The translations under genes were made by a program, and so were the position numbers. This document shows, one piece after another, positions 21,498 through 63,131 of a stretch of DNA of 64,000 nt (positions within the stretch are counted from its first letter, which is position 1; each line of letters begins with the position of its first letter). The notes below the pieces were generated by a model. That model saw only the letters and a list, made by a program, of their open reading frames with translations, did not search any database and was not told the DNA's origin. Source of the stretch: Actinoplanes sp. NBC_00393. GTDB lineage: Bacteria > Actinomycetota > Actinomycetes > Mycobacteriales > Micromonosporaceae. Where the stretch lies: NCBI RefSeq assembly GCF_036053395.1, contig NZ_CP107942.1, positions 1,144,501 through 1,208,500 on the forward strand, given 5' to 3'.

Positions 21498-24365
21498 TTA
21501 TCGAGTGATCGGAACGCCGCGGGCCGCGGCCTCCACGCGCCGGGAGACCGCTTCCAGCGGGTTCAGGGAGAGCAGGGCGGCGAACGAATCGGGGCCGGGC
21601 TCGGGAATCGTGCAGTCGCCGAGCTCCTGCAACGCCGGCTGTTTCTCCGGCTCGGCCTCGGCGCTGATCTCCGCCGGCAGCAGGTCGCAGGCCGCGGCGG
21701 GGAGCAGGCGCCGGCCGGCCGGCAGAACGCCCTCCTCCCGGATGACGTCGGCGTGCACGATCCGGTAGCCGGCGGGTTCGAGGCCGGTATCGGTGGTGAC
21801 GCGCAGCCCCGGGATCTCGGTTCGCGCACTCAACCGCATCTCGGGGAGGTGCCGCAGGAACAATGGGTGGCTGACGTTCGGGTCCTCGGCGCCGGGGAAC
21901 CACGACAGCGGCAGGAGCAGCAGGAGCTCGGCCGGTTGCGGCGTCTGATCGAATTCGGCCGGCAGCGTCTGTTCGGGCTCCTGGTGCCCGCCCTCCAGCC
22001 AGGTGCGAACCGCGGGCGACACCACGTCGTCCAGGTCGGCGACACCCTGCTCCACGGCCGTCCGGTCGTCGGCGGCCATCGCCATGACCACCCGGCCCAG
22101 CTTCCCGGCCGCCGTCCGGATGTCCGGATCGACGCCGTCACCGTCGGCGGCCCGGAACTCGGCCGCCGGATCCCGGCGCTCCTGCAACCGGGCCCGGACC
22201 GCGTCGAGCGCCTGCAGCGGCCGGGTGCGATCCACCCTGCCGCCGGTGTCCAGCAGGTCGAGGAGCGGACGCTCGATCTTGTCCCAGCTGGCCACCGAGT
22301 CCAGGCTGGTGAACGCGTCGATGTACGAGACCAGCAGCTCCTCCGCCTCCGGCAGGCGGTCCTGGGCCACCCGCACCACGGCCAGGTCGAAGTCGCCCTC
22401 GTGCATGCCGGCCTGGCGCATCTTCCCGGCGTAGAGCTCGACCCGCTCGTGATCGCCGGTGAGCAGGCCGACCCGGGTGGCCGACGACCAGTTGGACCGG
22501 TCGGCGAGCCGGGTCCGCAGCCAGGTGTCCACGTCCTTGGCGGCGGCGATCGCCTCGGGCCGCGAGCCGGCCAGCAGCAGCGCCAGGATGTGGCTGATCT
22601 TCGCCCACGCCGCGTGTGCTTCCGGCGGGTGGCCGGCGAAGATGCCGACGGCGCCGGCCGGCCGGCCCAGGCGCAGCATGAGGTGGGCCTTCATGTTCCA
22701 CTCGAACTCGGTGCGCGGCTCGCTGAGCACGTCGAGGGCCCGCTCGAACTCGCCCACGTTGATCAGCGCCCGGATGTGCTCGGCCACGTTGTCCCTGGTG
22801 GGCGCGATCCGCGCGGCCGCTTCCGAGGCGAGCTCGGCCATCGACCAGAGGCCCAGTTCGTACGCGGCGTCGGCGAGGGAGACCCACATGGACCCGTTCG
22901 CGGGTTGCAGCGCGACCGCCCGGAAAGCGGCGGCCAGCGCTCGCCACTGCTGATCCTTCTCGGACTCGTGGGCGTAGCGGGACAGCCGGGCCCGTACGTA
23001 GCTCTCGTTGAAGTAGCCCCAGGCCAGCAGCCAGTCCGCGTTGGTGAGCCGGGGCCGCTGGGCCTCGACCAGCGCCGGGATGTCCGTGGTGACGGCAAGG
23101 ACCTCGTCCAGGGCGGCCTGGGCCTCCGTCTCGTTCGCCGACCAGGCCAGTTGCAGCAGGCAGCCGCCGAGCAGGCAACGCGCCTCGATGTGGTCGGGGT
23201 CGGCGGCGAGCAGCCGTCGCAGGGCGGCCAGCGCCCGGCCGGTGTGCTGGACGTCGCTCCAGGCGCTCGCGGCGGCCAGCAACTCCCGGTGCTCGGTCCC
23301 GGTGTCGCCGGCCAGATCCGCCAGCCGGTCGTGCGCCTCGGCCTGGACCGCCCGGTTCTGCCCGGTGTCCGCGGCGCTGCGCAGTGACCGCTCGGCGAGT
23401 TCGCGCTGCTCCTCGCCGAGCGCGCGTTCGGCCAGGGCGAGGTGGATCTCGCCGGGGACCGGGTCGAGCATCCGGACGATCTCGCGTTCGGCGTCGTCCA
23501 GCGAGCGGGCGGCGGACACCGCGCTGCGGGCTGCCGACATGCCCATGTCCACGTTGAGGTCGGGTGAGGCGTCCGCGGCCGACATCGCCAGCACGCGGGC
23601 CATCTCGAGCATGGCCGGGGCGGAGCCGGCGCCGATCCGCATCAGGTCGGCGCGCGGCGGGTCGGCGCCGGGCCGCAGGGCCTCGAGCCGGTGCGACAGC
23701 GCCCGGAAGACCGGGCCGGCGCCGGCACCACCGGCCTCCTCGAGCACCCGCCGGGCCTCTTCGGTGCGTCCGGCGTTCAGCGCGAACCGGACGAGCAACA
23801 TCCAGAGGTCCTGGCGGACCTCCATGTCCGGGACGATCCGGTCGCCCACGGGCACCCCCCGGGCGCCGGCCTCCAGCAGTGGCGCGGCCACCTCCCAGTG
23901 CCGCACGGTCAACGCCGCCCACGTCGCGGTGCAGCGCCGGACCAGGATGCCGGTGCCGGCCGGCAGCGAACTCGCTATCCCGGTGAGCCGGGCACAGGCA
24001 TCGAGACGGTACGCGGCGACCGCGCAGAACCAGTCGTCGAGCCAGTCGGCGATCCCGTCGAGCGGACGGTCCGCGCACTCGGCGGTCAGTTCGGCACGCC
24101 GTTCCGGCCAGCCGAGCTCGGTGAAGCGCACCACCCGTTCGCCGTCGCGGATCCGGGCCATCGCGGCGCTCAGGTCGGCGATCGCGCCCTGCAGGTCGGC
24201 CGCCCGCTGCAACAGCACCTGGTGTGCGTGCTGGAACCCGGCGGCCGGCGCGTGGGCGGTGATCTCCGGCAGCGCCGCGCTGAGGCCGAGGTCGATCCGC
24301 CGTTTCTGCCGCAGCCGTCCATCGAGCTGGGCGACGAGCTCATCGGGTTCCGGGATGCCGGTCAT
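21498..24365 (-). CDS. Helical-repeat (TPR-like) protein of the trypsin-CHAT operon
   Basis: A 955-residue protein with no signal peptide. Most of it (residues ~60-780) is degenerate alpha-helical repeat resembling TPR: ALAALRRLLAADPDHIEARCLLGGCLLQLA, MWVSLADAAYELGLWSMAELASEAAARIAPT and FERALDVLSE. The C-terminal ~180 residues (LLLLLPLSWFPGAEDPNVSHPLFLRHLPEMRL...) are a separate domain I do not recognise. It starts 13 bp after the trypsin-CHAT stop, with GAGGGG upstream, so it is the last gene of the operon. It is probably the scaffold or target-recognition partner. No nuclease, NTPase or toxin motif was found. Confidence 0.75.
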   Translation of the reverse strand: MTGIPEPDELVAQLDGRLRQKRRIDLGLSAALPEITAHAPAAGFQHAHQVLLQRAADLQGAIADLSAAMARIRDGERVVRFTELGWPERRAELTAECADRPLDGIADWLDDWFCAVAAYRLDACARLTGIASSLPAGTGILVRRCTATWAALTVRHWEVAAPLLEAGARGVPVGDRIVPDMEVRQDLWMLLVRFALNAGRTEEARRVLEEAGGAGAGPVFRALSHRLEALRPGADPPRADLMRIGAGSAPAMLEMARVLAMSAADASPDLNVDMGMSAARSAVSAARSLDDAEREIVRMLDPVPGEIHLALAERALGEEQRELAERSLRSAADTGQNRAVQAEAHDRLADLAGDTGTEHRELLAAASAWSDVQHTGRALAALRRLLAADPDHIEARCLLGGCLLQLAWSANETEAQAALDEVLAVTTDIPALVEAQRPRLTNADWLLAWGYFNESYVRARLSRYAHESEKDQQWRALAAAFRAVALQPANGSMWVSLADAAYELGLWSMAELASEAAARIAPTRDNVAEHIRALINVGEFERALDVLSEPRTEFEWNMKAHLMLRLGRPAGAVGIFAGHPPEAHAAWAKISHILALLLAGSRPEAIAAAKDVDTWLRTRLADRSNWSSATRVGLLTGDHERVELYAGKMRQAGMHEGDFDLAVVRVAQDRLPEAEELLVSYIDAFTSLDSVASWDKIERPLLDLLDTGGRVDRTRPLQALDAVRARLQERRDPAAEFRAADGDGVDPDIRTAAGKLGRVVMAMAADDRTAVEQGVADLDDVVSPAVRTWLEGGHQEPEQTLPAEFDQTPQPAELLLLLPLSWFPGAEDPNVSHPLFLRHLPEMRLSARTEIPGLRVTTDTGLEPAGYRIVHADVIREEGVLPAGRRLLPAAACDLLPAEISAEAEPEKQPALQELGDCTIPEPGPDSFAALLSLNPLEAVSRRVEAAARGVPITR

Positions 24366-24378
24366 CGGTCGCCGCCCC

Positions 24379-26289
24379 TCATCCGCGTGACGGCCGGGGA
24401 TGCCGGCCGCGGGTCTCGGCGAAGGCGGGGCGTTCGAAGAACCGCGCCCACGGATTGTTGCCGGTGGTGACGGTGAACCAGCCGAACCCGGCGAAGTCGA
24501 TCAGGCTGTCGGTCATCAGCGCCTGCCGGGCCTCCTGCACCGCCTGCTCGACGGTGCGGCCGGCCGCCAGCTGCGGGTAGAAGAACTGGTTGAACCGTTC
24601 GTACTGGTGCGGGTGCAGCGGCCGGGTGCAGACCATGGTGTCGAAGCCGAGCTCGGTGGCCGCGCTGAGCACCGCGGGCCCGATCGGCTGGCAGCCCTTG
24701 CCGAGCATGTCGTACGGCTGGTCGACCGGCGGCAGGCCGAACTCGAGGATCACCAGGGACGGTTGCAGCGCGGCGATGACCTGGAGGAACTCGCGGGCCC
24801 GGTGATACTGGGGCTTCTCCATCCGGCGCCCGGGCGAGCAGGCGATCCAGGCCCGGTCCAGCCCGGAGGTGGAGTCGGACTCGGGCTCCTGATAGCCGAA
24901 GCCCATGTAGTGCACGACGTCGGCCTGGATGCTCGACTGGCGCAGTTTGATCTCGGCAAGCGTGGGATTGGTCAACAGGTCGTAGCGGAACGCCGCGGAA
25001 CCCTCTGCCGTGCGGGCGGCGCCGACCGAGCCGGCGATGCCGTCCTCGATCTCGGCGCTGGACGGCCACGGCATGAGGTTCTGGCTGTGCACGACCGGCG
25101 GCCAGCGGGTGATGTCGTCCGGCTGGACCACGATGGCGAACACGCCGACCTGCTCGTCCGGCGAGTTGCGCCGCAGGGTTCCGCCGCCGCCCCGCGGCAC
25201 GGTGGAGTTGACCCGGACGAACGCGTATCCGTCGGTGGCGGCGAGGAACCGCTCCGGGTCCTTCGGGTCGGTGGCGAACTCCCACGGCAGGTCGGCGAGC
25301 GGGCCGGACGGGTCCACGTGCAACCGGATCAGCACCGGGTCCTCGCTGCGCTCGGCCGGGCGGGGCAGCCGGTCGGCGACCTCGGCGGGGAACATCGCCG
25401 CGGACAGCAGCCGGCCGAGCAGCCGCACCTCGGGTTCGTCGCGGCGCCCGGAGCTGCGCGCCCAGCCGACGAGCACCTCGCTCATGTCGTCGCCGAGGTC
25501 GCGCACGGTGCGGACCGGGCCCAGGTCGTCGGGGCGGATGCCGATCCGCCACTGGCTGCGGTTGCCGTTGAGGTAGATGTCCACCTGCTGGTCGCGGCTC
25601 CACACCAGGCCGAGGCTCTCCCAGTGGGCGCGGCCCAGCAGCTCGCGGCAACGGCGGATGGCCTCCGGCGGCTCGGCGGCGAGTTTGGCCAGCTGGGGAT
25701 AGGCGTCCAGGACGGTGTTCACCGGTATGGCGCCGCCGCCGAGGTCGAAGTCCGGATCTTCCGAGTAGACGCAGACGGCCGACACGGCGCCGGTGCCGGT
25801 GTTGAGCACCGGCCCGCCGGAGAAGCCGGGTTTGATCTGCACTCCGGTCAGCCGGAACAGCTCGAGTGTCCCGGTCCTGGTGTGGTAGCGGGGATGGCCG
25901 TCGGCGGGCACCACCTCGAGCCCGCCGGCCATGTCCTCGTAGAAGTCCTCGCGCGGGAAGCCGGCCAGCCGGTAGGCGCCGATGTCGAGGTCGCGGTGCA
26001 GCAGCACCGCCGGGATCGCCGGGTCGGCGTCCACCTCGACGAGCGCGATGTCGAGGTCGGGGTGCGACTCCGACGGTGGCAGCACCGTCCCGGTCCGCGG
26101 CTCGGCGCCGAACGGCTGCACCGTCACCTCGACGGCCTCTTCGACGACGTGCCGGTTGGTCACCAGCAGGGTGCTGCTGACGAAGAAGGCGGCGCCGGCC
26201 GGCCGGGTCCCGCTCAGCGGGGTGATGCGGGCCGTGCACTCCCGGAGCAGGTCGCTGAGTCCCTTGACGACGTCGTCGGAGAGCTCCAT
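24379..26289 (-). CDS. Trypsin-like protease fused to a degenerate CHAT domain
   Basis: A 636-residue cytoplasmic protein in two parts. Residues 1-200 are a trypsin fold with an intact triad: His47 (VTNRHVV), Asp80 (DLDIALVEV) and Ser157 (KPGFSGGPV). Residues ~315-610 are a CHAT (caspase-like) domain with the usual LPWEF motif (333-337). Its catalytic His would fall at Phe464 (VVHYMGFG) and its Cys at Phe517 (LVILEFGLPP), so the CHAT part looks inactive. A helical linker joins them. It is the middle gene of the operon, 9 bp after the Trypco2 gene. Such trypsin/CHAT proteins with Trypco partners are known from predicted actinobacterial conflict systems. Confidence 0.85.
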   Translation of the reverse strand: MELSDDVVKGLSDLLRECTARITPLSGTRPAGAAFFVSSTLLVTNRHVVEEAVEVTVQPFGAEPRTGTVLPPSESHPDLDIALVEVDADPAIPAVLLHRDLDIGAYRLAGFPREDFYEDMAGGLEVVPADGHPRYHTRTGTLELFRLTGVQIKPGFSGGPVLNTGTGAVSAVCVYSEDPDFDLGGGAIPVNTVLDAYPQLAKLAAEPPEAIRRCRELLGRAHWESLGLVWSRDQQVDIYLNGNRSQWRIGIRPDDLGPVRTVRDLGDDMSEVLVGWARSSGRRDEPEVRLLGRLLSAAMFPAEVADRLPRPAERSEDPVLIRLHVDPSGPLADLPWEFATDPKDPERFLAATDGYAFVRVNSTVPRGGGGTLRRNSPDEQVGVFAIVVQPDDITRWPPVVHSQNLMPWPSSAEIEDGIAGSVGAARTAEGSAAFRYDLLTNPTLAEIKLRQSSIQADVVHYMGFGYQEPESDSTSGLDRAWIACSPGRRMEKPQYHRAREFLQVIAALQPSLVILEFGLPPVDQPYDMLGKGCQPIGPAVLSAATELGFDTMVCTRPLHPHQYERFNQFFYPQLAAGRTVEQAVQEARQALMTDSLIDFAGFGWFTVTTGNNPWARFFERPAFAETRGRHPRPSRG

Positions 26290-26298
26290 GACCCGCCG

Positions 26299-26628
26299 CT
26301 ACTCGCTCGCCGCGGACGCCCGGGACCGGCTCGGCCGGTCGTTCTCCGCGACTGCCAGCTGCTTGCCGGTCCGTCCGTCGACCGGCTCCAGGCTGATCCG
26401 CACCACCTGAGTGGACCGGGAGGCCAGCTTGCCGTCGGCGCCGGCCTCTACGACCCAGAACCGCACCTTGCCGCTCGCCCCGGCCTCGCGCGCTATCTCG
26501 ACCTGGAACTCCAGCTCCACCGGCCCCACGTTGAACTGCAGCTGCTCGCCGGCGCCGCGGATCCGGGCCTCCTGAAGCTCCTCACGCAGCAGCGCGATCG
26601 CCTCGGCCAGTTCGATTCGACCATCCAT
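26299..26628 (-). CDS. Trypco2-domain protein
   Basis: A 109-residue protein: coiled start (IELAEAIALLREELQEARI) followed by a beta-rich core (QFNVGPVELEFQVEIAREAG, KVRFWVVEAG, QVVRISLEPV). This matches the trypsin-co-occurring domain 2 family, which accompanies trypsin-like or CHAT effectors. The ATG at 26628 is the only start giving the family N-terminus. It is first in the operon, 9 bp before the trypsin-CHAT gene. The usual inference is that it is a sensor or adaptor that controls the protease. Confidence 0.82.
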   Translation of the reverse strand: MDGRIELAEAIALLREELQEARIRGAGEQLQFNVGPVELEFQVEIAREAGASGKVRFWVVEAGADGKLASRSTQVVRISLEPVDGRTGKQLAVAENDRPSRSRASAASE

Positions 26629-26657
26629 GGCCTCGATGATCCCGCGCCCGGGATCGC

Positions 26658-28514
26658 CTAGACTGTCCGGTTCCCGACACCCCGCTGCCCGTCGAGACCA
26701 CGGTTCAGGGCGATCGCGGCGTCGATCAGGGCCAGGTGGGTGAAGGCCTGCGGGAAGTTGCCGAGCTGCTCGCCGGTCAGGCCGATCTCCTCGGAGAACA
26801 GGCCCAGGTGGTTGGCGTACGTCAGCATCTTCTCGAAGGTGAGCCGGGCCTTGTCGAGCTCGCCGGCGCCGGCCAGCGCGGTGACGTACTGGAAGGTGCA
26901 GAGCGAGAAGGTGCCCTCGTCGCCGGCCAGGCCGTCCGGTGAGGCGGCCGGGTCGTAGCGGTAGACCAGGCTGTCGGTGACCAGCTCGGACTCCATGGCC
27001 CGCAGCGTCGAGGTCCACATCGGGTCACCCGGGGTGATGAACCCGACCGTGGGCATCCGCAGCAGCGAGGAGTCGAGCACGTCGGTCTCGTAGTGCTGGC
27101 GGAAGGCCTGCCGGGCCGGGCTCCAGCCGCGCTGCATGATCTCGTCGTAGATGGCGTCGCGCTGCTGACGCCAGGTGTCCAGCGGGGCGGGCCGGCCGTA
27201 GTCGTTCGCCATCCGCAGGCCGCGGTCCAGGGCGACCCAGCACATCAGCCGGCCGTAGGTGAAGTTCTGCCGGCCGCCGCGGGTCTCCCAGATGCCCTCG
27301 TCGGGCTGTGACCAGTTGGCGGCCACCCAGTCGAGCAGGTCGCGGATCGCCAGCCAGCCCTGGTGACCGGGGGCCAGGCCGTGCCGGTTGGCGACGTACA
27401 GGCTGTCCAGGGCCTCGCCGTAGATGTCGAGCTGGAGCTGGCCGGCCGCGCCGTTGCCGATCCGGACCGGCGCGGAGCCGCGGTAGCCCTCCCAGTGCGG
27501 CAGGGTCTCCTCGACGAGGTCGCTGGAGCCGTCGACCCGGTACATCAGGCGCAGTGGGCCGCTGCCGTCCTTCTCGGTCTGCTCGTGCACCCGGTCGCGC
27601 AGCCAGCGGGCCAGTCCGGCGGCCTCGTCGGTGAAGCCGAGCGAGAGCAGCGAGTAGACCGAGAACGACGCGTCGCGTACCCAGGTGTAGCGGTAGTCCC
27701 AGTTGCGCTCGCCGCCCAGCTGCTCGGGCAGGGCCGCGGTGGGCGCGGCGACCAGGGCGCCGCTGGGGGCGTACGTCATCAGCTTCAACGTGATCGCCGA
27801 GCGGTGCACCATCTCGCGCCAGCGCCCGTCGTACGTGCATCCGCCGATCCACGACGACCAGAAGGCGACGGTGTCGTCGAACAACCGCAACGCCTCGGCC
27901 ACCCGCACGGCGCGCAGCGTCCCGGCGCCGGTCTCCAGCACCAGGCCGCGTGCCTCGCCGGCGGTGAGCCGCACCTCGCCACGGACGTCGCCGTCGTTGT
28001 CCACCCAGAACCGGCCCTTGCGTTCGTCGTCCGGCTCGCGGATCACCCGGACCGTCAGCGCGTTACGGGCGCCCTCGAAGACCACCCCGTCCTCGGTGAT
28101 GTGGGCCTGGTGCGGCTCGCGGCCGTAGTCGAACCGGGGTGCCAGGTGCACCGCGAAGGTGATCTCACCGCGGACGCAGCGCACCAGACGCACCAGACAG
28201 TGCCGGTCGGACGCGGTGTCACCGGCGGTGACCGGCATGAAGTCGATGATCTCGCCGACCCCGCCGGCGGTCAGGAACCGGGTGACCAGCACCGCGCTGT
28301 CCGGCAGGTAGAGCTGCTTGGTGGTGAACGCCTCGGTGGTGGGCCGGGTGGTCAGGTGACCGCCGCGCTCGGCGTCCAGCAGGGCGCCGAAGACGCTCGG
28401 CGAGTCGAACCGGGGCGCACACCACCAGTCGACGGTGCCGTCCGTGGTGACCAGGGCGGCGGTCTGCAGGTCGCCGATCAGCCCGTGGTCGGCGATGAGC
28501 GGGTAGTCAGCCAT
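26658..28514 (-). CDS. Glycoside hydrolase family 15 protein (trehalase/glucoamylase-like)
   Basis: A 618-residue cytoplasmic enzyme starting [22 protein letters not shown], the standard start of actinobacterial GH15 proteins. An N-terminal beta-sandwich (to ~250) precedes the (alpha/alpha)6 barrel. Catalytic acids are visible: [11 protein letters not shown] (general acid) and [21 protein letters not shown] (general base). Relatives include mycobacterial trehalase and bacterial glucoamylases, so alpha-glucoside hydrolysis is likely. An upstream ATG at 28526 would add four residues; I chose 28514. Confidence 0.92.
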
Positions 28515-28568
28515 GCCGGCCAGCATGCGACCGCCCGGCAGCGCCCGGCATCACTCCGGGCGGATGAG

Positions 28569-29627
28569 TTAGCGGCGCCGCCAGGGCCAGGCCCGCCATG
28601 GCCGGCCGGTCGGTGGGCCGAGCCGCAGCGCGCCGGTGACGATCGCGTGCGGGTCGCGGATGGTGACCGCCGGCAGCAGGCCGCCGGCGGACAGGCCGGC
28701 CTCGACCGCGGGCAGGGCGCCGTCGTCCCCGACCAGCACGACCGGGCCGATGTCGCCGCGGGCCAGGGCGGCGTCGGCGAGGAGCCGTTTGACCGCCTCG
28801 TCGAGGCGGCTGAGGTGGGTGGCGGTCGCCGCGGTCAGGTCCTCGCGGGTCAGCACGACGGCCGGATGCGGTTCGGGCAGCAGCGTGGGCACGACCGGCT
28901 GGACGGCCAGGGCGGTGCGGGCCTGCTGGATCTCGCGGGCGACCCGCCAGTCGTCGAGCGCCGCGGCCGGGTCGGTGCCGGGGGAGGCACGTTCGGCGGC
29001 GAGCCGGATCAGGGCCTCGTCGACGGTGGGGGAGCCGGGGTCGCGTACCGGGGCGGTGGCCAGCTGCCGGTAGCCGTGCGCCGCGTCCACCACGGTGAGT
29101 TCGGGGGTCGCCTCGCCGGTCGTGCAGACCGTGATGAACGGGCCGGCCGGGGCGGCGCCGGCCAGGACCGCGGCGGCCGCGGCCACGGTGACGATCTCCG
29201 GGGTGGGCAGCCCGGCACCGGTGGCGGCCCGGTCCAGGCGCTGGCGGGCCGACGGCCCCCAGCGGCGGGCGGTGACGACGATGAGCTCGGTGACCCGGGC
29301 CCGGGCCTGTGCCGTCGCGGCCTCCGCGACGTGGGCGAGCAGCGCGGCGAGCGCCGCGACCGGGTCGAACCGGGCGTCCGGGGCGGGGGTGCCGGTGTGC
29401 AGCAGCGTCATCGGGTCGGGCCGGTAACCCTCGGCCAGCTCCGCGCTGGCCGCCAGGGCCGGGGTGCCGATGGTCAGCGCCCGGGTGTCGGGGTTCTGGT
29501 AGACGCCGGAGGGCAGCCGGGCCTGGCCGTCGAAGAAGACCGGCCGCAGCGTGCCGGCGGACTCGTACACCGCGGTGGTCCACCAGGCGGCGATGTCGAC
29601 GGCCAGACGAAGATCCGCGGCGGGCAT
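28569..29627 (-). CDS. Hsp70/actin-fold-like protein of unknown function
   Basis: A 352-residue protein with an N-terminal beta-hairpin (LRLAVDIAAWWTTAVYESAG), a middle RVTELIVVTARRWGPSARQRL and a C-terminal GPVVLVGDDGALPAVEAGL, the layout of HSP70-like ATPase domains lacking the substrate domain. Classic Hsp70 phosphate-loop residues are poorly kept, so ATP binding is uncertain. The frame is open back to 29831 (420 codons), but the ATG at 29627 fits the fold start. A weak sibling of this type is common in actinomycetes. Confidence 0.6.
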   Translation of the reverse strand: MPAADLRLAVDIAAWWTTAVYESAGTLRPVFFDGQARLPSGVYQNPDTRALTIGTPALAASAELAEGYRPDPMTLLHTGTPAPDARFDPVAALAALLAHVAEAATAQARARVTELIVVTARRWGPSARQRLDRAATGAGLPTPEIVTVAAAAAVLAGAAPAGPFITVCTTGEATPELTVVDAAHGYRQLATAPVRDPGSPTVDEALIRLAAERASPGTDPAAALDDWRVAREIQQARTALAVQPVVPTLLPEPHPAVVLTREDLTAATATHLSRLDEAVKRLLADAALARGDIGPVVLVGDDGALPAVEAGLSAGGLLPAVTIRDPHAIVTGALRLGPPTGRPWRAWPWRRR

Positions 29628-29797
29628 GTCCGGCAGTGTCCCAAAGGGACGATTGGCGTACGGGGCCGACCGGGATCTTCTTCGCATAGTGACAGATCGA
29701 TCCCTCCCGGTGGTCAGAGAGATCGCCCGGAAGGTAGGGAAAAATCGCCAATGACGGGTCGCGGCGAGCGGGCGCCCGGACCCCTTAGAGTCTGGGC

Positions 29798-30970
29798 GTG
29801 AAGATCTCCAGCCGGGCGCAGGCCATCGCACCGTTCTACGCGATGGAGGTGGCGAAACACGCCGCCATGCTGGAGGCCGACGGTCATCACATCGTCAAGC
29901 TGAACATCGGCGAGCCGGACTTCGGGGCGCCCCCGGTGGTGCGCGCGGCGATGCGGGACGTGATGGACGGGCGCCCGCTGCCGTACACGGCGGCGCTCGG
30001 GCTGCCCGCGCTGCGGCAGGCGATCTCCGGTTTCTACCGCGACGAGCACGGCATCGAGGTGGACCCGGCCCGGGTGGTGGTGACCGCCGGCGCCTCGGCC
30101 GCCCTGGTCCTGGCCGCCGCGGCGCTGGTCGACCCGGGCGACGAGGTGATCATCGCGGACCCCTCCTACCCCTGCAACCGGCAGATCATCGAGAGCTTCG
30201 GCGGGATCGTGCGGCTGGTGCCGACCACCCCGGCGACCCGGTTCCAGCTGGACGAGGCATCGGTACGCGCACACTGGTCGAAACAGACCGGCGGAGTCAT
30301 GGTCGCCACCCCGTCCAACCCGACCGGCACCTCGGTCCCCGCCGGTGAGCTCGCCGCGATCTGCCGGCTGGCCCGGGTGCACGGCGCCTGGAGCATCGTC
30401 GACGAGATCTACCTGGACCTGAGCGACCGCGACTGCGAGGGCCGGTTGCCGCGGACCGCGCTGGCCGTCGACCCGGACGTCGTGGTCATCAACAGCTTCT
30501 CCAAGTACTTCGGGCTGACCGGCTGGCGGCTCGGCTGGTGCGTGCTGCCGGAGGTGCTGGTGCCGGCGGTGGAGCGGCTGGCGCAGAACTACTACATCTG
30601 CGCCTCGGCTCCGGCGCAGGAGGCCGCGCTGGCCTGTTTCACCCCGGAGGCGCGGGCGGTCTGTGAGGAGCGCCGCGCCGAGTTCGGGGCCCGCCGCGCC
30701 CTGGTCCTGGACGGGCTGGCCCGGATCGGTCTGCCGGTCCCGGTTCCGCCGGACGGCGCCTTCTACTGCTACTTCGACGTCAGCGGCACCGGGCTCAGCT
30801 CGTGGCAGTTCTGCGAGCGGGCGCTGCAGGAGGCACACGTCGCGCTCACCCCGGGACGCGATTTCGGTACGCACACCGCGGACACCCACGTGCGGCTGTC
30901 GTACACCGCGTCCCAGTCCGACCTGCGTAAGGGGCTCGCCCGGCTGCACCGGTTCGTCGCCGGCCTGTAG
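29798..30970 (+). CDS. PLP-dependent aminotransferase, class I/II
   Basis: A 390-residue fold-type I enzyme. The PLP Lys236 lies in NSFSKYFGLTGWRLGW, with VVTAGASAALVLAAAAL near 94, PSNPTGTSVPAGEL near 172 and the phosphate/substrate Arg near the C-terminus (THVRLSYTASQSDL). It is closest in text to aspartate aminotransferase-like enzymes; the donor is not determinable here. GTG start with a -10-like TTAGAGT a few nt upstream suggests a leaderless mRNA. Confidence 0.9.
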   Translation: MKISSRAQAIAPFYAMEVAKHAAMLEADGHHIVKLNIGEPDFGAPPVVRAAMRDVMDGRPLPYTAALGLPALRQAISGFYRDEHGIEVDPARVVVTAGASAALVLAAAALVDPGDEVIIADPSYPCNRQIIESFGGIVRLVPTTPATRFQLDEASVRAHWSKQTGGVMVATPSNPTGTSVPAGELAAICRLARVHGAWSIVDEIYLDLSDRDCEGRLPRTALAVDPDVVVINSFSKYFGLTGWRLGWCVLPEVLVPAVERLAQNYYICASAPAQEAALACFTPEARAVCEERRAEFGARRALVLDGLARIGLPVPVPPDGAFYCYFDVSGTGLSSWQFCERALQEAHVALTPGRDFGTHTADTHVRLSYTASQSDLRKGLARLHRFVAGL

Positions 30971-36375: not shown

Positions 36376-37356
36376 TTGAGAAAGCTATGGGGGACCGTCG
36401 CCGCGGTCGTCGCCGCCGTCACGGTCGGTGCGGTCGCCGCCCCCACGCCCGCACACGCCATCGCACACGGTGACAGCGTCCCCGACGGCCGGTACACATT
36501 CGCCGTCAAGATCACCGAGTTGGGCATTCCCACCGCGGACGGCGGCACCCGGGACAGCTCCTGCTCCGGCGGGCTGATCTCCCCGCACTGGGTGCTCACC
36601 GCCGCACACTGCTTCCGCGATCTGAGCGGCAAACGGGTGTCGCGCACGGTCGCCGAGCGGACCATCGCCACGGTCGGCCGGGCCGACCTGACCGGCAAGG
36701 CCGGTTTCACCGCGAACGTGGTCCAGGTGCGCCAGCACGGCAAGGCGGACGTGGCACTGGCCCGGATCGACAAGGCGATCACCGGCATCACCCCGCTGCG
36801 GCTGAGCCGCAGCAAGCCGGCCGACGGGCAGCGGGCCCGGCTGGTCGGTTATGGCTTCACCAGGAAGGGCGCCGAGCGTACGCCCGATCGCCTGCGAACC
36901 GGCCGGTTCGAGGTGACGTCGGTCGACACCACCGAGATGGGCCTGTCCGGGATCGCGCCGCGGGCGGACACCAGCCCGTGCGAGCGGGACTCCGGCGGTC
37001 CCTACTTCACCGAGCCCAAGAACGGCCCGGCCGTCGTGATCGGTGTGGTCAGCCGCGGCCCGGACTGCCCGCACACCGGCCCGGACATCGCCACCCGGGT
37101 CGACGCCCTGGCCCCGTGGATCCTCTCGGTCATCAAGAAGGACCTGGCGGCGCCGCCGTCACCCCCGGCACCGGCCGCGTCCCGGCCGCCGTCGCGCGTC
37201 CCGGACCCGGTGGCGGCCGCCCCGCAGGAGCCGGCCGGCCGGACCCTGCCGCCGGTCGCGCTGCTGACCGTTCCGGTAGCCGTCGGAAGCGTCGTGCTCT
37301 TGCTGGCGGCGCTGCGGCGCGGCCGCCGTTACCGGGGTCACCGCCGGCGCGGCTGA
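36376..37356 (+). CDS. Secreted trypsin-like serine protease with C-terminal membrane anchor
   Basis: A 326-residue S1 peptidase. Signal peptide (VAAVVAAVTVGAVAAPTPAHA), then the triad His78 (VLTAAHCF), Asp125 (ADVALARI), Ser206 (CERDSGGPY) with disulfide-type cysteines. After a Pro/Ala-rich linker (SPPAPAASRPPSRVPDP) a hydrophobic segment (VALLTVPVAVGSVVLLLAAL) and basic tail anchor it in the membrane. TTG start; TAGGCT lies about 10 bp upstream, so the transcript may be nearly leaderless. Confidence 0.85.
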   Translation: MRKLWGTVAAVVAAVTVGAVAAPTPAHAIAHGDSVPDGRYTFAVKITELGIPTADGGTRDSSCSGGLISPHWVLTAAHCFRDLSGKRVSRTVAERTIATVGRADLTGKAGFTANVVQVRQHGKADVALARIDKAITGITPLRLSRSKPADGQRARLVGYGFTRKGAERTPDRLRTGRFEVTSVDTTEMGLSGIAPRADTSPCERDSGGPYFTEPKNGPAVVIGVVSRGPDCPHTGPDIATRVDALAPWILSVIKKDLAAPPSPPAPAASRPPSRVPDPVAAAPQEPAGRTLPPVALLTVPVAVGSVVLLLAALRRGRRYRGHRRRG

Positions 37357-54948: not shown

Positions 54949-55320
54949 ATGGTGTTCCTCGACGGACTGGAGAAGGCGCAGGCGACGGCGGCGATGCCGC
55001 TCGTGACGGCGGCCCTGGAGAACGCGGCCGACATCTTCGATGCGGAGCGGCGCGCGTGGTCGCGGGCCCGTCAGCAGGTCATCACCGCGCACGAGGCCCT
55101 GCAGGAACGCGAACTGCTCAAGATGTCCTCGCTGGCCGCTGCGCTGATCCGCGCCCTGACTGGGCGGGGGATCGAGGCGACCACCGCCGCGCTCGCCGCC
55201 GAGAGCGGGGTCACCGTGTTCCGGACCGCGTTCGCGGCGTGGATCGCGGACGGCGAGGATCGTTCCTTCGGCGAGATCCAGCATCAGATGCTCGACAAAC
55301 TTCGGGAGACCGTACGGTGA
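54949..55320 (+). pseudogene. TetR regulator lacking its DNA-binding domain
   Basis: A 123-residue product (MVFLDGLEKAQATAAMPLVTAAL... HEALQERELLKMSSLAAALIRAL ... GVTVFRTAFAAWIADG) matching the C-terminal ligand domain of TetR proteins. A stop codon lies five codons upstream of the ATG and no HTH exists in any frame before it. It overlaps the downstream fusion gene by 4 bp, so it may still be translated with it. It is probably a degenerate gene; a DNA-binding-free sensor is less likely. Confidence 0.6.
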
Positions 55321-56822
55321 CGCGCTTCGTCCTCTTCCCCGGCCGCCATCACCTGCTCACGCAGTTCCAGGCCGACTACCTCAGCGGGCTCGGCGCCGAG
55401 ACGATCGTGTGGGCGGTGACCTCGGCGAACCACGAGAACACCAAGCGCAACCCGGTGCCGTACCACCGGCGGGAGGCGGCGATCGAGCGGTTCAGCCTGC
55501 TCAGCGGCCTGCGCTCGGTGGTCGTGCCGATCTTCGACGCGGCGCCGACCGACGCGTTCGCCGACGTGACGCTCAAAAGCATCGCGGTCGCCACCGGGCT
55601 GGAACTCACCCCGGCGGACACCGTGGTCGCCTGCTCCACGCCCGAGGTGGCGAAACTGTACGAGCGGCTCGGCTTCGACATCGCGCCGGTGGAGGCGGAT
55701 CCGCAGTTGCGTACCGCGCCGGAACGGCCGTGGGACGTGCTGCTGCGCCTGGCCGCCGGCGACGAGTCCTGGCGCAAGCTGGCCCACCCGGCCACCCTCG
55801 ACGTCTACGAGCGGTACCGGCTCGCCGACACCGTCCGCACCGTGGTCAACGACCCGCTGGTCGGCGCTGAGGGCGGGCTCACCGCAACCCGCGACTACCG
55901 GACGTATGTCGAGGCTTTCGCCGACGCCGCCGAGCGCAAGTGGACCGCCGTCCGCCAGCACGTGCGGCCCGGCCGGATCGTCGACATCGGCTGCGGCGCC
56001 GGTTCGCTGCTGGAACTCGCCGACCGCGAGCCCGGCCTGCACGAGAGCGACCTGATCGGCGTCGAGGTGGCCCGCCACCTGTACTCCGAGTGCGTCCACA
56101 AGAAGGCGCAGGGCGTCTTCCGCAACGCCAACGTGTACTTCTACCAGCGCAACGTCCTCGGCGGCGCGATCTTCGCGGACCGCTCGGTGGACACCACGCT
56201 CACCTTCGCGCTGACCCACGAGATCTGGTCCTACGGCCGGCAGCGCGAGTCACTGCTGCAGTTCGCCCGGCGCATCTTCGAGCACACCGCGCCCGGCGGC
56301 GTCTGGATCAACAGCGACGTGTGCGGCCCCGACGACCGCCGCCGCCCGGTCACCCTGCGGCTGACCACCGCCGACGGCGAGAACCCCGCGCAACCGCGGC
56401 GTGATCTCACCGGTCTCTCTTCCGAGCAGATCAAGGCGTACGTCCAAAGCCTCTCCACCCGCGCCCGGCTCGACCAGTTCGCGGCCGATTTCGCGTTCCC
56501 CTTCGACTACGAGGCGCTCGACGAGGACACCGTCCGCATCGAGCTCGGCGCGGCGATGGACTACCTCACCCGCAAGGACTACGTCGACAACTGGCTGTCC
56601 GAGACGCAGGAGCAGTTCTGCGGCCTGTCCTTCGCCGAGTGGTCCGCCCTGCTCACCGAGGTCGGTTTCGAACTGGACCCCGCCTCGACCCCGATCCGCA
56701 ACGACTGGATCATCGACAACCGCATCGCCCCCGTCGCCGCCCTGACCGACCTCGACGGCCACCCCCTCGACTGGCCCACCACCCACCTGCTCGCCGTAGC
56801 CCGCCGCCCCCGCAACAGCTGA
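55317..56822 (+). CDS. Nucleotidylyltransferase-like/SAM methyltransferase fusion
   Basis: A 501-residue cytoplasmic protein. Residues ~1-170 look like an NMN-adenylyltransferase fold: FVLFPGRHHLLTQFQADYL where HxGH is expected, SANHENTKRNPVPYHRREAAIERF, TVVACSTPEVAKLYERLGFDI and a distal LLRLAAGDESWRKLAHPAT. The HxGH/ISSTxxR signature is degraded, so nucleotidyl transfer is doubtful. Residues ~215-490 are a Rossmann methyltransferase (GRIVDIGCGAGSLLELAD). The GTG at 55317 overlaps the previous stop (GTGA). The substrate is unknown; a nucleotide-linked metabolite is the natural guess. Confidence 0.75.
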   Translation: MTRFVLFPGRHHLLTQFQADYLSGLGAETIVWAVTSANHENTKRNPVPYHRREAAIERFSLLSGLRSVVVPIFDAAPTDAFADVTLKSIAVATGLELTPADTVVACSTPEVAKLYERLGFDIAPVEADPQLRTAPERPWDVLLRLAAGDESWRKLAHPATLDVYERYRLADTVRTVVNDPLVGAEGGLTATRDYRTYVEAFADAAERKWTAVRQHVRPGRIVDIGCGAGSLLELADREPGLHESDLIGVEVARHLYSECVHKKAQGVFRNANVYFYQRNVLGGAIFADRSVDTTLTFALTHEIWSYGRQRESLLQFARRIFEHTAPGGVWINSDVCGPDDRRRPVTLRLTTADGENPAQPRRDLTGLSSEQIKAYVQSLSTRARLDQFAADFAFPFDYEALDEDTVRIELGAAMDYLTRKDYVDNWLSETQEQFCGLSFAEWSALLTEVGFELDPASTPIRNDWIIDNRIAPVAALTDLDGHPLDWPTTHLLAVARRPRNS

Positions 56823-61352: not shown

Positions 61353-62373
61353 CCCGGCTGTGGCCGAGGTGAGGGCCGGCCGGCGCAGGCCGGCCCTCAC
61401 CGTGGGCCGTCGTGTCCTGGACGGTTTCCTGCGCCGCCGCGAGGCCAGCGTGCTGCTCGTCGCGCTCGGTCTGATGATCTACTTCCGGTGGGCCAGCCCG
61501 GTCTTCCTCACCCGCAACAATCTGGTGAACATCGCGCAGGCCACCGCACCGGTCGCGATCGTCGCGGTCGGCATCGTGCTGCTGCTGGTCAGCGGCGAGA
61601 TCGACCTGTCGGTCGGGATCGTGGCCGCGCTCGCGCCGTTCCTGCTGCACTTCGCGGTCGACTTCTACGACCAGCCGGTGCTGGTCGGGCTGCTCGCCGC
61701 GCTGCTGATCTCGGCCGGCATCGGCCTGTTCAACGGGTTGATCGTGACCAAGCTGCGAGTGCCGTCGTTCGTCACCACCCTGGGCACGTTCTTCGCGGTC
61801 CAGGGCATCCTGCTGATCACCTCGAAGGCGTACCCGGTGCCGATTCCGGAACCGGCCAAGGGCACCTGGCAGACCTGGCTCGGCGCCGGCCCGTGGGCGA
61901 GCATCAGCTGGGCGATCGTCATCGTGGCGATCTTCCACGTGGTCCTCACCCGCACCCGCTGGGGTCTGCACACGATCTCCGTCGGCGGCAACCCGATCGG
62001 TGCGACCGAGGCCGGCATCCGGGCCTCGCGCATCAAGATCGGAAACTTCATCATGACCAGTACGCTCGGCGGCTTCGTCGGCATCATGGAGGCCTTCCGG
62101 ATCAACACCATCGACCCCAACATCGGCGGGGGTACGACCCTCACCTTCTACGCCATCTCGGCGGCGGTCATCGGCGGCACCGCCCTGGCCGGCGGTTCCG
62201 GCACCATCGTCGGCGCGTTCCTCGGCGCCCTGGTCCTCGCCGAACTGCAGAACGGCTTCAACCTGATCGGCTACAGCGCCAACACCATCTACCTGATCCT
62301 CGGGCTGGCCATCCTCGTCTCGATGATCGCCAACCAGTACCTGTCACGACTACGCCGAGCCGGGAGGACGTGA
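61345..62373 (+). CDS. ABC sugar permease (RbsC/BPD_transp_2 type)
   Basis: A 342-residue permease with 8-10 helices (IVAVGIVLLLVSGEIDLSVGIVAAL; FNGLIVTKLRVPSFVTTLGT; FYAISAAVIGGTALAGGSG). The ribose/galactose importer motif GEIDLSVG is intact. It overlaps the binding-protein gene by 8 bp and the ATPase gene by 1 bp. Confidence 0.92.
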   Translation: MADPAVAEVRAGRRRPALTVGRRVLDGFLRRREASVLLVALGLMIYFRWASPVFLTRNNLVNIAQATAPVAIVAVGIVLLLVSGEIDLSVGIVAALAPFLLHFAVDFYDQPVLVGLLAALLISAGIGLFNGLIVTKLRVPSFVTTLGTFFAVQGILLITSKAYPVPIPEPAKGTWQTWLGAGPWASISWAIVIVAIFHVVLTRTRWGLHTISVGGNPIGATEAGIRASRIKIGNFIMTSTLGGFVGIMEAFRINTIDPNIGGGTTLTFYAISAAVIGGTALAGGSGTIVGAFLGALVLAELQNGFNLIGYSANTIYLILGLAILVSMIANQYLSRLRRAGRT

Positions 62374-63131
62374 TGGCCGACGACGCGCTGCGCGTGGTCA
62401 ACGTGGCGAAACGGTTCGGCGCCCTCACCGCGCTGCGCGACGTCAACCTGCACGTGGCGAAGGGCGAGGTGCTCGGCCTGATCGGCGACAACGGCGCCGG
62501 CAAGTCCACGTTGATGAAGATCATCTGCGGCTTCCACCGCCCCGACGCCGGCCGCATCCTCGTCGACGGCACGGAGGTGACGCTGCGCAGCGTGGACCAT
62601 GCCCGCTCGCTCGGCATCGACACCGTCTACCAGGACCTGGCGCTGGTCAACGAGCTGTCGGTCTATCACAACATGTTCCTCAACCGGGAGCTGGTGCGCT
62701 GGCCGCTGCTCAACAACCGCGCCATGCGCCGCCGCGCGGAAGAGCACCTGAAGGACATGGGCGTGAACCTGCCCGACGTCACGGTCGAGGTGGCGAAGCT
62801 GTCCGGCGGCCAGCGCCAGGCGATCGCGGTGGCCCGCTCGGTCTACTCAGACGCCCGCATCCTGCTGCTCGACGAGCCGTTGGCAGCGATGGGCGCCAAG
62901 GAGGGCACCCTGATCCTGGACCTGATCCGAGACCTGAAACAGCGCGGCGAAGTCTCGATCATCATCATCGCCCACAACTACGCCCAGGTCCTCGACGTCT
63001 GCGACCGCGTCAACCTGCTCCGGCACGGCGAGATCACCTTCGACAAGCGAGCCACCGAAACCTCCTTGGAGGAGCTGACCGAACTGGTCGTAGCCGAATA
63101 CCGGGCCTCCCGGCGCCGCCCCGGCCGCTAG
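62373..63131 (+). CDS. Single-domain ABC sugar ATPase
   Basis: A 252-residue ATPase: Walker A GDNGAGKST, signature KLSGGQRQAIAVARSV, Walker B ILLLDEPLAAMGAKE and H-loop IIIAHN. RbsA-type importers normally carry two ATPase domains in one chain; this one has only one (FrcA-like), so it should homodimerise. The start uses the A of the permease stop codon (TGATG). Confidence 0.9.
   Translation: MADDALRVVNVAKRFGALTALRDVNLHVAKGEVLGLIGDNGAGKSTLMKIICGFHRPDAGRILVDGTEVTLRSVDHARSLGIDTVYQDLALVNELSVYHNMFLNRELVRWPLLNNRAMRRRAEEHLKDMGVNLPDVTVEVAKLSGGQRQAIAVARSVYSDARILLLDEPLAAMGAKEGTLILDLIRDLKQRGEVSIIIIAHNYAQVLDVCDRVNLLRHGEITFDKRATETSLEELTELVVAEYRASRRRPGR

What the first reader, a model, noticed from the sequence alone, without database searches (positions are those of the whole stretch)
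21498..26628. Trypco2 - trypsin/CHAT - TPR-like operon, a candidate protease-based conflict system
Three adjacent minus-strand genes with 9- and 13-bp gaps encode a Trypco2 protein, a trypsin-CHAT fusion and a 955-residue helical-repeat protein. Trypco2 and CHAT/trypsin proteins are reported in predicted actinobacterial counter-invader systems. The large third protein looks like a sensor scaffold and lacks obvious homologous domains in its last 180 residues. Order and spacing suggest one complex in which Trypco2 and the repeat protein control the protease.
Basis: partly seen in the sequence, partly recalled or inferred. Interest (0 to 1): 0.8.

Follow-up and report, generated by a model that had tools for sequence, protein, structure and literature searches.

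The report
Three-gene protease cassette with dead caspase
Three neighbouring genes of a soil actinobacterium travel together as a rare, self-contained cassette whose working part looks like a trypsin-type protein cutter controlled by a caspase-like domain that has lost its own cutting residues and by a large repeat protein, probably a cell-protection switch that has not been tested.

Summary
The three genes exist as described: Trypco2 (26299-26628), a trypsin-CHAT fusion (24379-26289) and a 955-residue TPR protein (21498-24365). Profiles and predicted folds confirm the domains, with one correction: the CHAT domain is a pseudo-protease. In 28 aligned sequences (window's included) its catalytic His and Cys are replaced in every row that covers them (27 and 26), while the trypsin triad is kept in every covering row. 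In 200 family genomes the fusion and the full-length TPR protein occur in the same three. One near relative has the flanking genes adjacent, without the trio. VMAP-C was not found in three of four trio genomes searched, and Pfam finds no NTPase in the three proteins. Best reading: a stand-alone, NTPase-free variant of the predicted Trypco-trypsin conflict systems, in which TPR protein and pseudo-CHAT gate the trypsin. Complex, trigger, substrate and defence role are not shown. New variant of a known, largely predicted kind.

The parts
26299..26628 (-). Trypco2 protein, 109 aa (PF19631 at residues 5-82)
   Evidence: Pfam E 1e-27, cut-off passed; the only Trypco2 match at E 0.001 in the 11.4-Mb genome
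24379..26289 (-). trypsin - pseudo-CHAT fusion, 636 aa
   Evidence: Pfam; AlphaFold2 mean pLDDT 84.9; alignment of 24 rows, itself included
25681..26289 (-). trypsin/HtrA-like protease domain, residues 1-203, triad H47 (26149-26151), D80 (26050-26052), S157 (25819-25821)
24436..25404 (-). pseudo-CHAT domain, residues 296-618; the position of the catalytic His is F464 (24898-24900), that of the Cys about G518 (24736-24738, by hand alignment)
21498..24365 (-). 955-aa TPR solenoid protein with its own C-terminal domain
22173..23438 (-). TPR superhelix core, residues 310-731
   Evidence: best row 5dse_A, 353 aligned, rmsd 5.0
21936..21986 (-). flexible linker, residues 794-810 (pLDDT under 50)
21501..21932 (-). 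C-terminal domain of the TPR protein, residues 812-955, motif LPxSWF...DPxxxHPLF
   Evidence: aligned in 5 loci; in 100 relatives its profile found the TPR proteins of G000 and G003 and one weak match with four stops

Best explanation
A stand-alone three-component regulated-protease cassette of the Trypco-trypsin conflict-system kind. The one predicted catalytic part is the N-terminal HtrA-like trypsin domain. The CHAT domain behind it keeps the caspase/separase-like fold but not the His-Cys dyad, and most likely serves as a docking and allosteric platform. The long TPR protein, encoded next door at every locus seen, most likely binds that platform (TPR and CHAT are parts of one protein in Craspase TPR-CHAT and in the trypsin-CHAT-STAND-TPR protein found here) and acts as sensor, brake, or both. 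Trypco2 or Trypco1 is an interchangeable small regulator. On a trigger, probably an invader- or stress-derived molecule bound by the TPR superhelix or its C-terminal domain, the trypsin is released and cleaves a cell protein, a phage protein, or the TPR protein itself at its flexible linker. Shown here: gene order, conservation, retained trypsin triad, lost CHAT dyad, predicted folds, presence/absence of the cassette. Inferred: physical complex, direction of control, trigger, substrate, defence role.
For: By my gene starts the genes overlap elsewhere (L032 protease/TPR 17 bp; L049 4 and 8 bp). In samples of 200 family genomes the pseudo-CHAT part matches 3 (G000, G003, G211) and the full-length TPR protein the same 3; four more genomes gave only short TPR matches, E 3e-6 to 8e-4. 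Identities of protease and TPR run in parallel over 7 pairs (Pearson 0.93 on 21 non-independent comparisons, Spearman 0.61). P. bogorensis (G003), same genus as the window, has a trio farther from the window's (34%/24%) than Nocardioides has (56%/40.5%), so the unit seems to move or sort as a block. A near relative (G015, L139) has the two flanking genes adjacent, 78 bp in place of 5.2 kb. Triad kept: H 26 of 26, D 27 of 27, S 27 of 27 covering rows of 28; CHAT His lost 27 of 27 (F 22, V 3, T 2), no Cys in 26 of 26. L064 joins trypsin, CHAT, AAA_16/STAND and TPR in one chain beside Trypco2, with the CHAT dyad intact; L066 is alike. Kaur 2020 names Trypco1/2 as mutually exclusive neighbours of trypsin in VMAP systems.
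Against: No functional data. No defence island seen in the window. No effector or substrate gene in the cassette. No trio homologue on plasmids (one cyanobacterial serine protease, 30% over a third of the query; none for the TPR protein) nor of the TPR protein in viral contigs. The cassette is rare, so statistics rest on few loci. Only one relative shows the empty site; in the other genus genomes where both flanking genes matched, they lie on different contigs or far apart. The 29-bp gap to the upstream GH15 gene allows a shared transcript with a metabolic gene. G+C and GC3 do not mark it as recently foreign. The alignment behind the CHAT fold claim passes the Pfam cut-off in the window protein but in only 1 of 5 relatives scanned.
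Confidence: 0.5

Rival explanations
1. A regulated HtrA-like quality-control or developmental protease: the TPR protein is a substrate adaptor that brings damaged or developmental proteins to the trypsin; no role against invaders.
For: Protease domain closest to DegS/HtrA folds and MarP/HtrA profiles; TPR solenoids are common adaptors (recalled); the identified neighbours look metabolic.
Against: Sporadic presence (3 of 200 family genomes), empty site in a near relative, and the Trypco1/Trypco2 exchange described for conflict systems do not fit a housekeeping role.
Confidence: 0.22
2. The TPR protein is the zymogen-like effector: on triggering, the trypsin cuts the flexible linker (about residues 791-812) and frees the C-terminal SWF/HPLF domain, which is the output.
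For: C-terminal domain is separate, conserved and behind a linker with pLDDT under 50; its motif block is the best conserved of the six blocks compared in the TPR protein; protease-activated proenzymes are known in Hachiman and AVAST (PMC12799240, abstract and opening read).
Against: The domain has no assigned function; it was not searched by fold on its own; the linker is not conserved in sequence.
Confidence: 0.15
3. The cassette is an accessory of the adjacent GH15/subtilase genes, co-transcribed with them for carbohydrate or protein turnover.
For: Co-oriented, 29 bp after GH15 and 52 bp before the S8 peptidase gene.
Against: A comparison of called neighbour genes within 8 kb of the five trios found matches only between L031 and L049 and between L033 and L049, none to the window's neighbours (gene calls incomplete).
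Confidence: 0.05

Closest known systems
VMAP MoxR-vWA ternary systems with trypsin and Trypco1/2 (Kaur et al. 2020, PMC7159879, passages read)
   Same: Trypsin N-terminal in a larger protein, Trypco1 or Trypco2 as the interchangeable neighbour gene
   Different: No VMAP-C match anywhere in G000, G211 or G787, while the same search finds it twice in G003; a pseudo-CHAT stands behind the trypsin; third gene is a TPR protein; MoxR and vWA are not among the immediate neighbours
NTPase-free predicted systems of the same paper: NucA-trypsin and EACC1-caspase (PMC7159879, passages read)
   Same: A peptidase as core component without an NTPase in the core
   Different: Those carry a NucA nuclease, or a membrane EACC1 protein with a caspase; neither has the trypsin - pseudo-CHAT plus TPR pair in the passages seen
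Trypco2 + single-chain trypsin-CHAT-STAND-TPR proteins
   Same: Same module order trypsin, CHAT, then TPR, Trypco2 upstream
   Different: One polypeptide with an AAA_16/NB-ARC-like NTPase and an intact CHAT dyad; here two polypeptides, no NTPase, dyad lost
Thiohalocapsa DGR 2 locus (PMC10907252, passages read)
   Same: Trypco2 beside a CHAT-bearing protein
   Different: CHAT there is joined to TIR and a diversified sensor in a retroelement locus; no trypsin-pseudo-CHAT fusion or TPR gene in the passages seen
Craspase TPR-CHAT / Csx29 (PMC9729208, passages read)
   Same: TPR solenoid working with a CHAT domain; RNA binding between linker and TPR switches the CHAT conformation
   Different: CHAT active (H585/C627), RNA-guided, no trypsin; here CHAT dead, TPR in a separate protein
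SAVED-CHAT (PDB 8tl0)
   Different: No SAVED match here by Pfam; dyad lost
Nuclease-protease pairs of Hachiman/AVAST (PMC12799240, abstract and opening read) and CARD-NLR LypABC (PMC13236601, passages read)
   Same: Trypsin-like protease as switch of an immune system; in LypABC with a TPR-bearing NLR
   Different: Those have ATPase or helicase sensors and nuclease effectors; the trio has neither by Pfam

Membership tests
Trypco2 (PF19631) | Pfam profile over its curated cut-off | tested here: met
   96.6 bits against 24.2, E 1e-27
Trypco2 (PF19631) | Neighbour gene encodes a trypsin-like peptidase | tested here: met
   9 bp away; a trypsin match also lies within 1.5 kb at 22 of the 30 Trypco2 loci laid, window included (home-made profile, E 0.001)
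Trypsin-like (S1) protease | His-Asp-Ser triad | tested here: met
   H47/D80/S157, kept in all covering rows; activity itself not tested
Active CHAT / caspase-like peptidase | His-Cys dyad | tested here: not met
   0 of 27 rows with the His, 0 of 26 with the Cys
CHAT fold | Profile and fold similarity | tested here: met
VMAP ternary system | VMAP-C domain protein | tested here: not met
   0 matches in G000, G211, G787; 2 in G003, so the search works
VMAP ternary system | Adjacent MoxR ATPase and vWA genes | tested here: not met
   Immediate neighbours are GH15, an Hsp70-like gene and a subtilase; the rest of the window was scanned, but only 25 of 69 matched families were displayed
STAND/Avs/CARD-NLR systems | NTPase domain in one component | tested here: not met
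   No NTPase family in the three proteins at E 0.1
Craspase TPR-CHAT | TPR and active CHAT in one polypeptide | tested here: not met
   Separate genes, dyad lost; gRAMP itself was not searched for
Anti-phage defence system | Protection against phage | not testable with these tools
   Needs phage challenge

The most novel reading that the evidence does not exclude
A bacterial pseudo-caspase that serves as dedicated allosteric controller of a trypsin: an NTPase-free, self-contained sensor (TPR plus SWF domain) - pseudo-CHAT - trypsin switch, derived from a single-chain trypsin-CHAT-STAND-TPR ancestor by splitting, loss of the NTPase and death of the CHAT active site, spreading as a three-gene cassette.
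Probability: 0.3. Interest if true: 0.72.

Novelty: new variant of a known kind. Interest (0 to 1): 0.55.

Why it matters
The immune proteases described in the papers seen here are mostly switched by an NTPase, a helicase or an RNA-guided sensor, although predicted NTPase-free systems exist (NucA-trypsin, EACC1; PMC7159879 passages). A compact cassette in which a dead caspase-like domain sits between a TPR sensor and a live trypsin would be a bacterial counterpart of the pseudo-caspase regulators of animal cell death (recalled, for example cFLIP), and it offers a minimal three-gene system in which to find out what Trypco1 and Trypco2 do; no tested function for them appeared in the papers seen.

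Tried and rejected
Defence-island idea: PADLOC on the 44 other window proteins (16 families, best mad3 2.5e-29, subtilase 6.6e-31, IetS 1.2e-13, HTH_VI 5.4e-12, mad8, capH, AriA, LmuA 6.7e-8, AbiLi, Avs1b 3.4e-7 and others). Tracing on 30 reads, 29 of the 44 plus a longer reading of the Hsp70-like gene: mad3, mad8, AriA, AbiLi, ATPase-Toprim and HEC-02A fall on one protein (62373-63131), subtilase and IetS on the adjacent S8 peptidase, LmuA and Avs1b on 36376-37356, mad2 on 55317-56822; I read these as shared folds. HTH_VI, capH, RmrA and the second protein that matched mad3, mad8 and AriA were not traced; 15 proteins were not scanned singly.

Mobile carriage: plasmids and, for the TPR protein only, viral contigs gave no trio homologue; the phage collection and the fusion protein in viral contigs were not searched. 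A fourth shared gene: called neighbour proteins within 8 kb of the five trios (13, 16, 16, 17 and 15 genes) compared by blastp gave nothing shared with the window; the gene calls behind it are incomplete. Membership in VMAP systems: rejected. The own-genome VMAP-C search alone was not conclusive because nothing rang in its controls. A protein search for the TPR protein with a 10-row profile found only the same 6 proteins. P0031 (E 1.7e-5, 1110 aa) was the one of 25 proteins left out of alignment A2.

Gene calling: one search failed, the caller missed the trios of L031 and L033 and gave nothing for several other loci, and the third version still missed those two trios; I read their ORFs directly. 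My caller also cut the start of the L066 protein: the trypsin match lies in the same open frame upstream, in L018. MAFFT placed a gap at the CHAT Cys site when L064/L066 were added, so the exact position G518 is by hand; that no Cys lies in that stretch does not depend on it. Sensitivity limits: protein searches scored about 8000 candidates, genome searches few candidates per genome (2-4; 9), and one search used a single peptide pattern, so rarity is approximate. Searches are taken to have drawn the same 200 genomes because size, quality and genus counts agree; this was not checked one by one. Papers: searches listed no description of this trio or of a trypsin-pseudo-CHAT pair that I recognised from titles, abstracts and passages; supplementary tables could not be read, so prior listing there is possible.
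Full report
OBSERVATION. The three minus-strand genes are present exactly as described. Pfam identifies Trypco2 (E 1e-27), Trypsin_2 plus CHAT (7.8e-13 and 5.2e-9) and TPR repeats (1.2e-6). NCBIfam (below its cut-offs) and the PDB place the protease domain near HtrA/MarP-type proteases. The window lies at 1.14-1.21 Mb of an 11.4-Mb single-contig genome; this is the genome's only Trypco2 match and its only close relative of the fusion protein: the other 14 matches score 58.8 bits or less against 866.6, and I take them for other trypsin-like proteins.

THE TRIO IS A UNIT. One named-genome scan gave three loci and a family scan a fourth. At all five loci, the window included, a Trypco gene, the fusion gene and the TPR gene follow each other in this order and strand. 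The Trypco gene is Trypco2 in the window and Nocardioides pinisoli, Trypco1 in Streptomyces sp. NRRL B-1347, Paractinoplanes bogorensis and unnamed G211. This is the exchange that Kaur et al. reported for trypsin-bearing VMAP systems (PMC7159879, passages). Of 200 family genomes, the pseudo-CHAT part matched three and the full-length TPR protein the same three; four further genomes gave only short, weak TPR matches, E 3e-6 to 8e-4. Of 394 genomes of the class, two carry the TPR protein, the own genome and G787; by contig position G787 is the Nocardioides genome of L031, as G003 is that of P. bogorensis. Of 396 of the phylum only the own genome has the fusion protein at E 1e-30.

CASSETTE BEHAVIOUR. 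In the relative G015 the flanking GH15 and S8 genes (89% and 79% identical proteins) lie next to each other; 78 bp stand where the window has 21498-26701, a stretch that includes the diverged last 44 bp of GH15. This is one relative; in the other genus genomes where both genes matched they are not neighbours. Whether it is gain in the window's lineage or loss in G015 is not decided. Protease and TPR identities rise and fall together over seven pairs (comparisons not independent, P values not meaningful), and the P. bogorensis trio, from the window's own genus, is more distant than that of Nocardioides. Base composition is ordinary for the genome. No further gene was found shared with the window around the other four loci (incomplete gene calls); three weak match rows link L049 with L031 and L033. 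If there is an effector, it is one of the three proteins or lies elsewhere.

RELATION TO KNOWN SYSTEMS. Of 150 genomes searched, own included, 45 have a Trypco2 match, 44 over the cut-off; 22 of the 30 loci laid have a trypsin match within 1.5 kb (profile built from this family, so a lower bound). Among these loci are L064, a trypsin-CHAT-AAA_16/NB-ARC-like-TPR single chain with intact CHAT dyad, and the similar L066, whose trypsin part my gene call cut off but which lies in the same frame, and L068, a trypsin-VMAP-M8-VMAP-C protein. L076 and L077 have Trypco2 beside a CHAT protein without a trypsin match; a Trypco2 beside a CHAT protein is also reported for a Thiohalocapsa retroelement locus (PMC10907252, passages). 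The trio thus looks like a split, NTPase-free edition of the same kit. VMAP-C was not found in three of the four trio genomes searched, and was found in the fourth, so the trio does not depend on a VMAP system there. In Craspase a TPR-CHAT protein changes its CHAT conformation when RNA binds between its linker and TPR parts (PMC9729208, passages); this is the best precedent for a TPR-to-CHAT signal. Kaur et al. [quoted passage not shown] nor are NTPase-free cores (NucA-trypsin, EACC1).

VERDICT. Real, conserved and predicted to be a regulated protease switch. The defence role rests on family association, sporadic distribution and presence/absence, not on data. I put the whole best explanation at 0.5 and the existence of a working three-protein unit higher.

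Noticed in passing
window 36376-37356 (+): A second trypsin-like protein 10 kb away, matching PADLOC LmuA (E 6.7e-8) and the N-terminus of Avs1b (3.4e-7); no link to the trio seen.
   Followed up: partly
L076:419-2171 and L077:9232-11630: Trypco2 genes directly beside CHAT-protein genes with a Cys motif (FINAC) and no trypsin match: Trypco2 may partner caspase-like proteases as well as trypsin.
   Followed up: partly
L064:9755-15082: Trypco2 followed by a 1662-aa trypsin-CHAT-STAND-TPR single-chain protein with intact CHAT dyad: two predicted proteases in one NLR-like protein.
   Followed up: partly
L068:9862-12644: In the genome that also carries a Trypco1 trio (P. bogorensis, G003), a Trypco2 with a trypsin-VMAP-M8-VMAP-C protein: both kinds in one genome.
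   Followed up: partly
window 26658-29831: The GH15 glucoamylase-like gene is preceded by an Hsp70-like gene (PF00012 at E 1.9e-10, partial), same strand, 42 bp away.
   Followed up: no
P0005 (Flindersiella endophytica) and P0006: TPR-protein relatives at 27% identity whose contigs could not be fetched here; whether they sit beside a pseudo-CHAT gene would test the unit.
   Followed up: no
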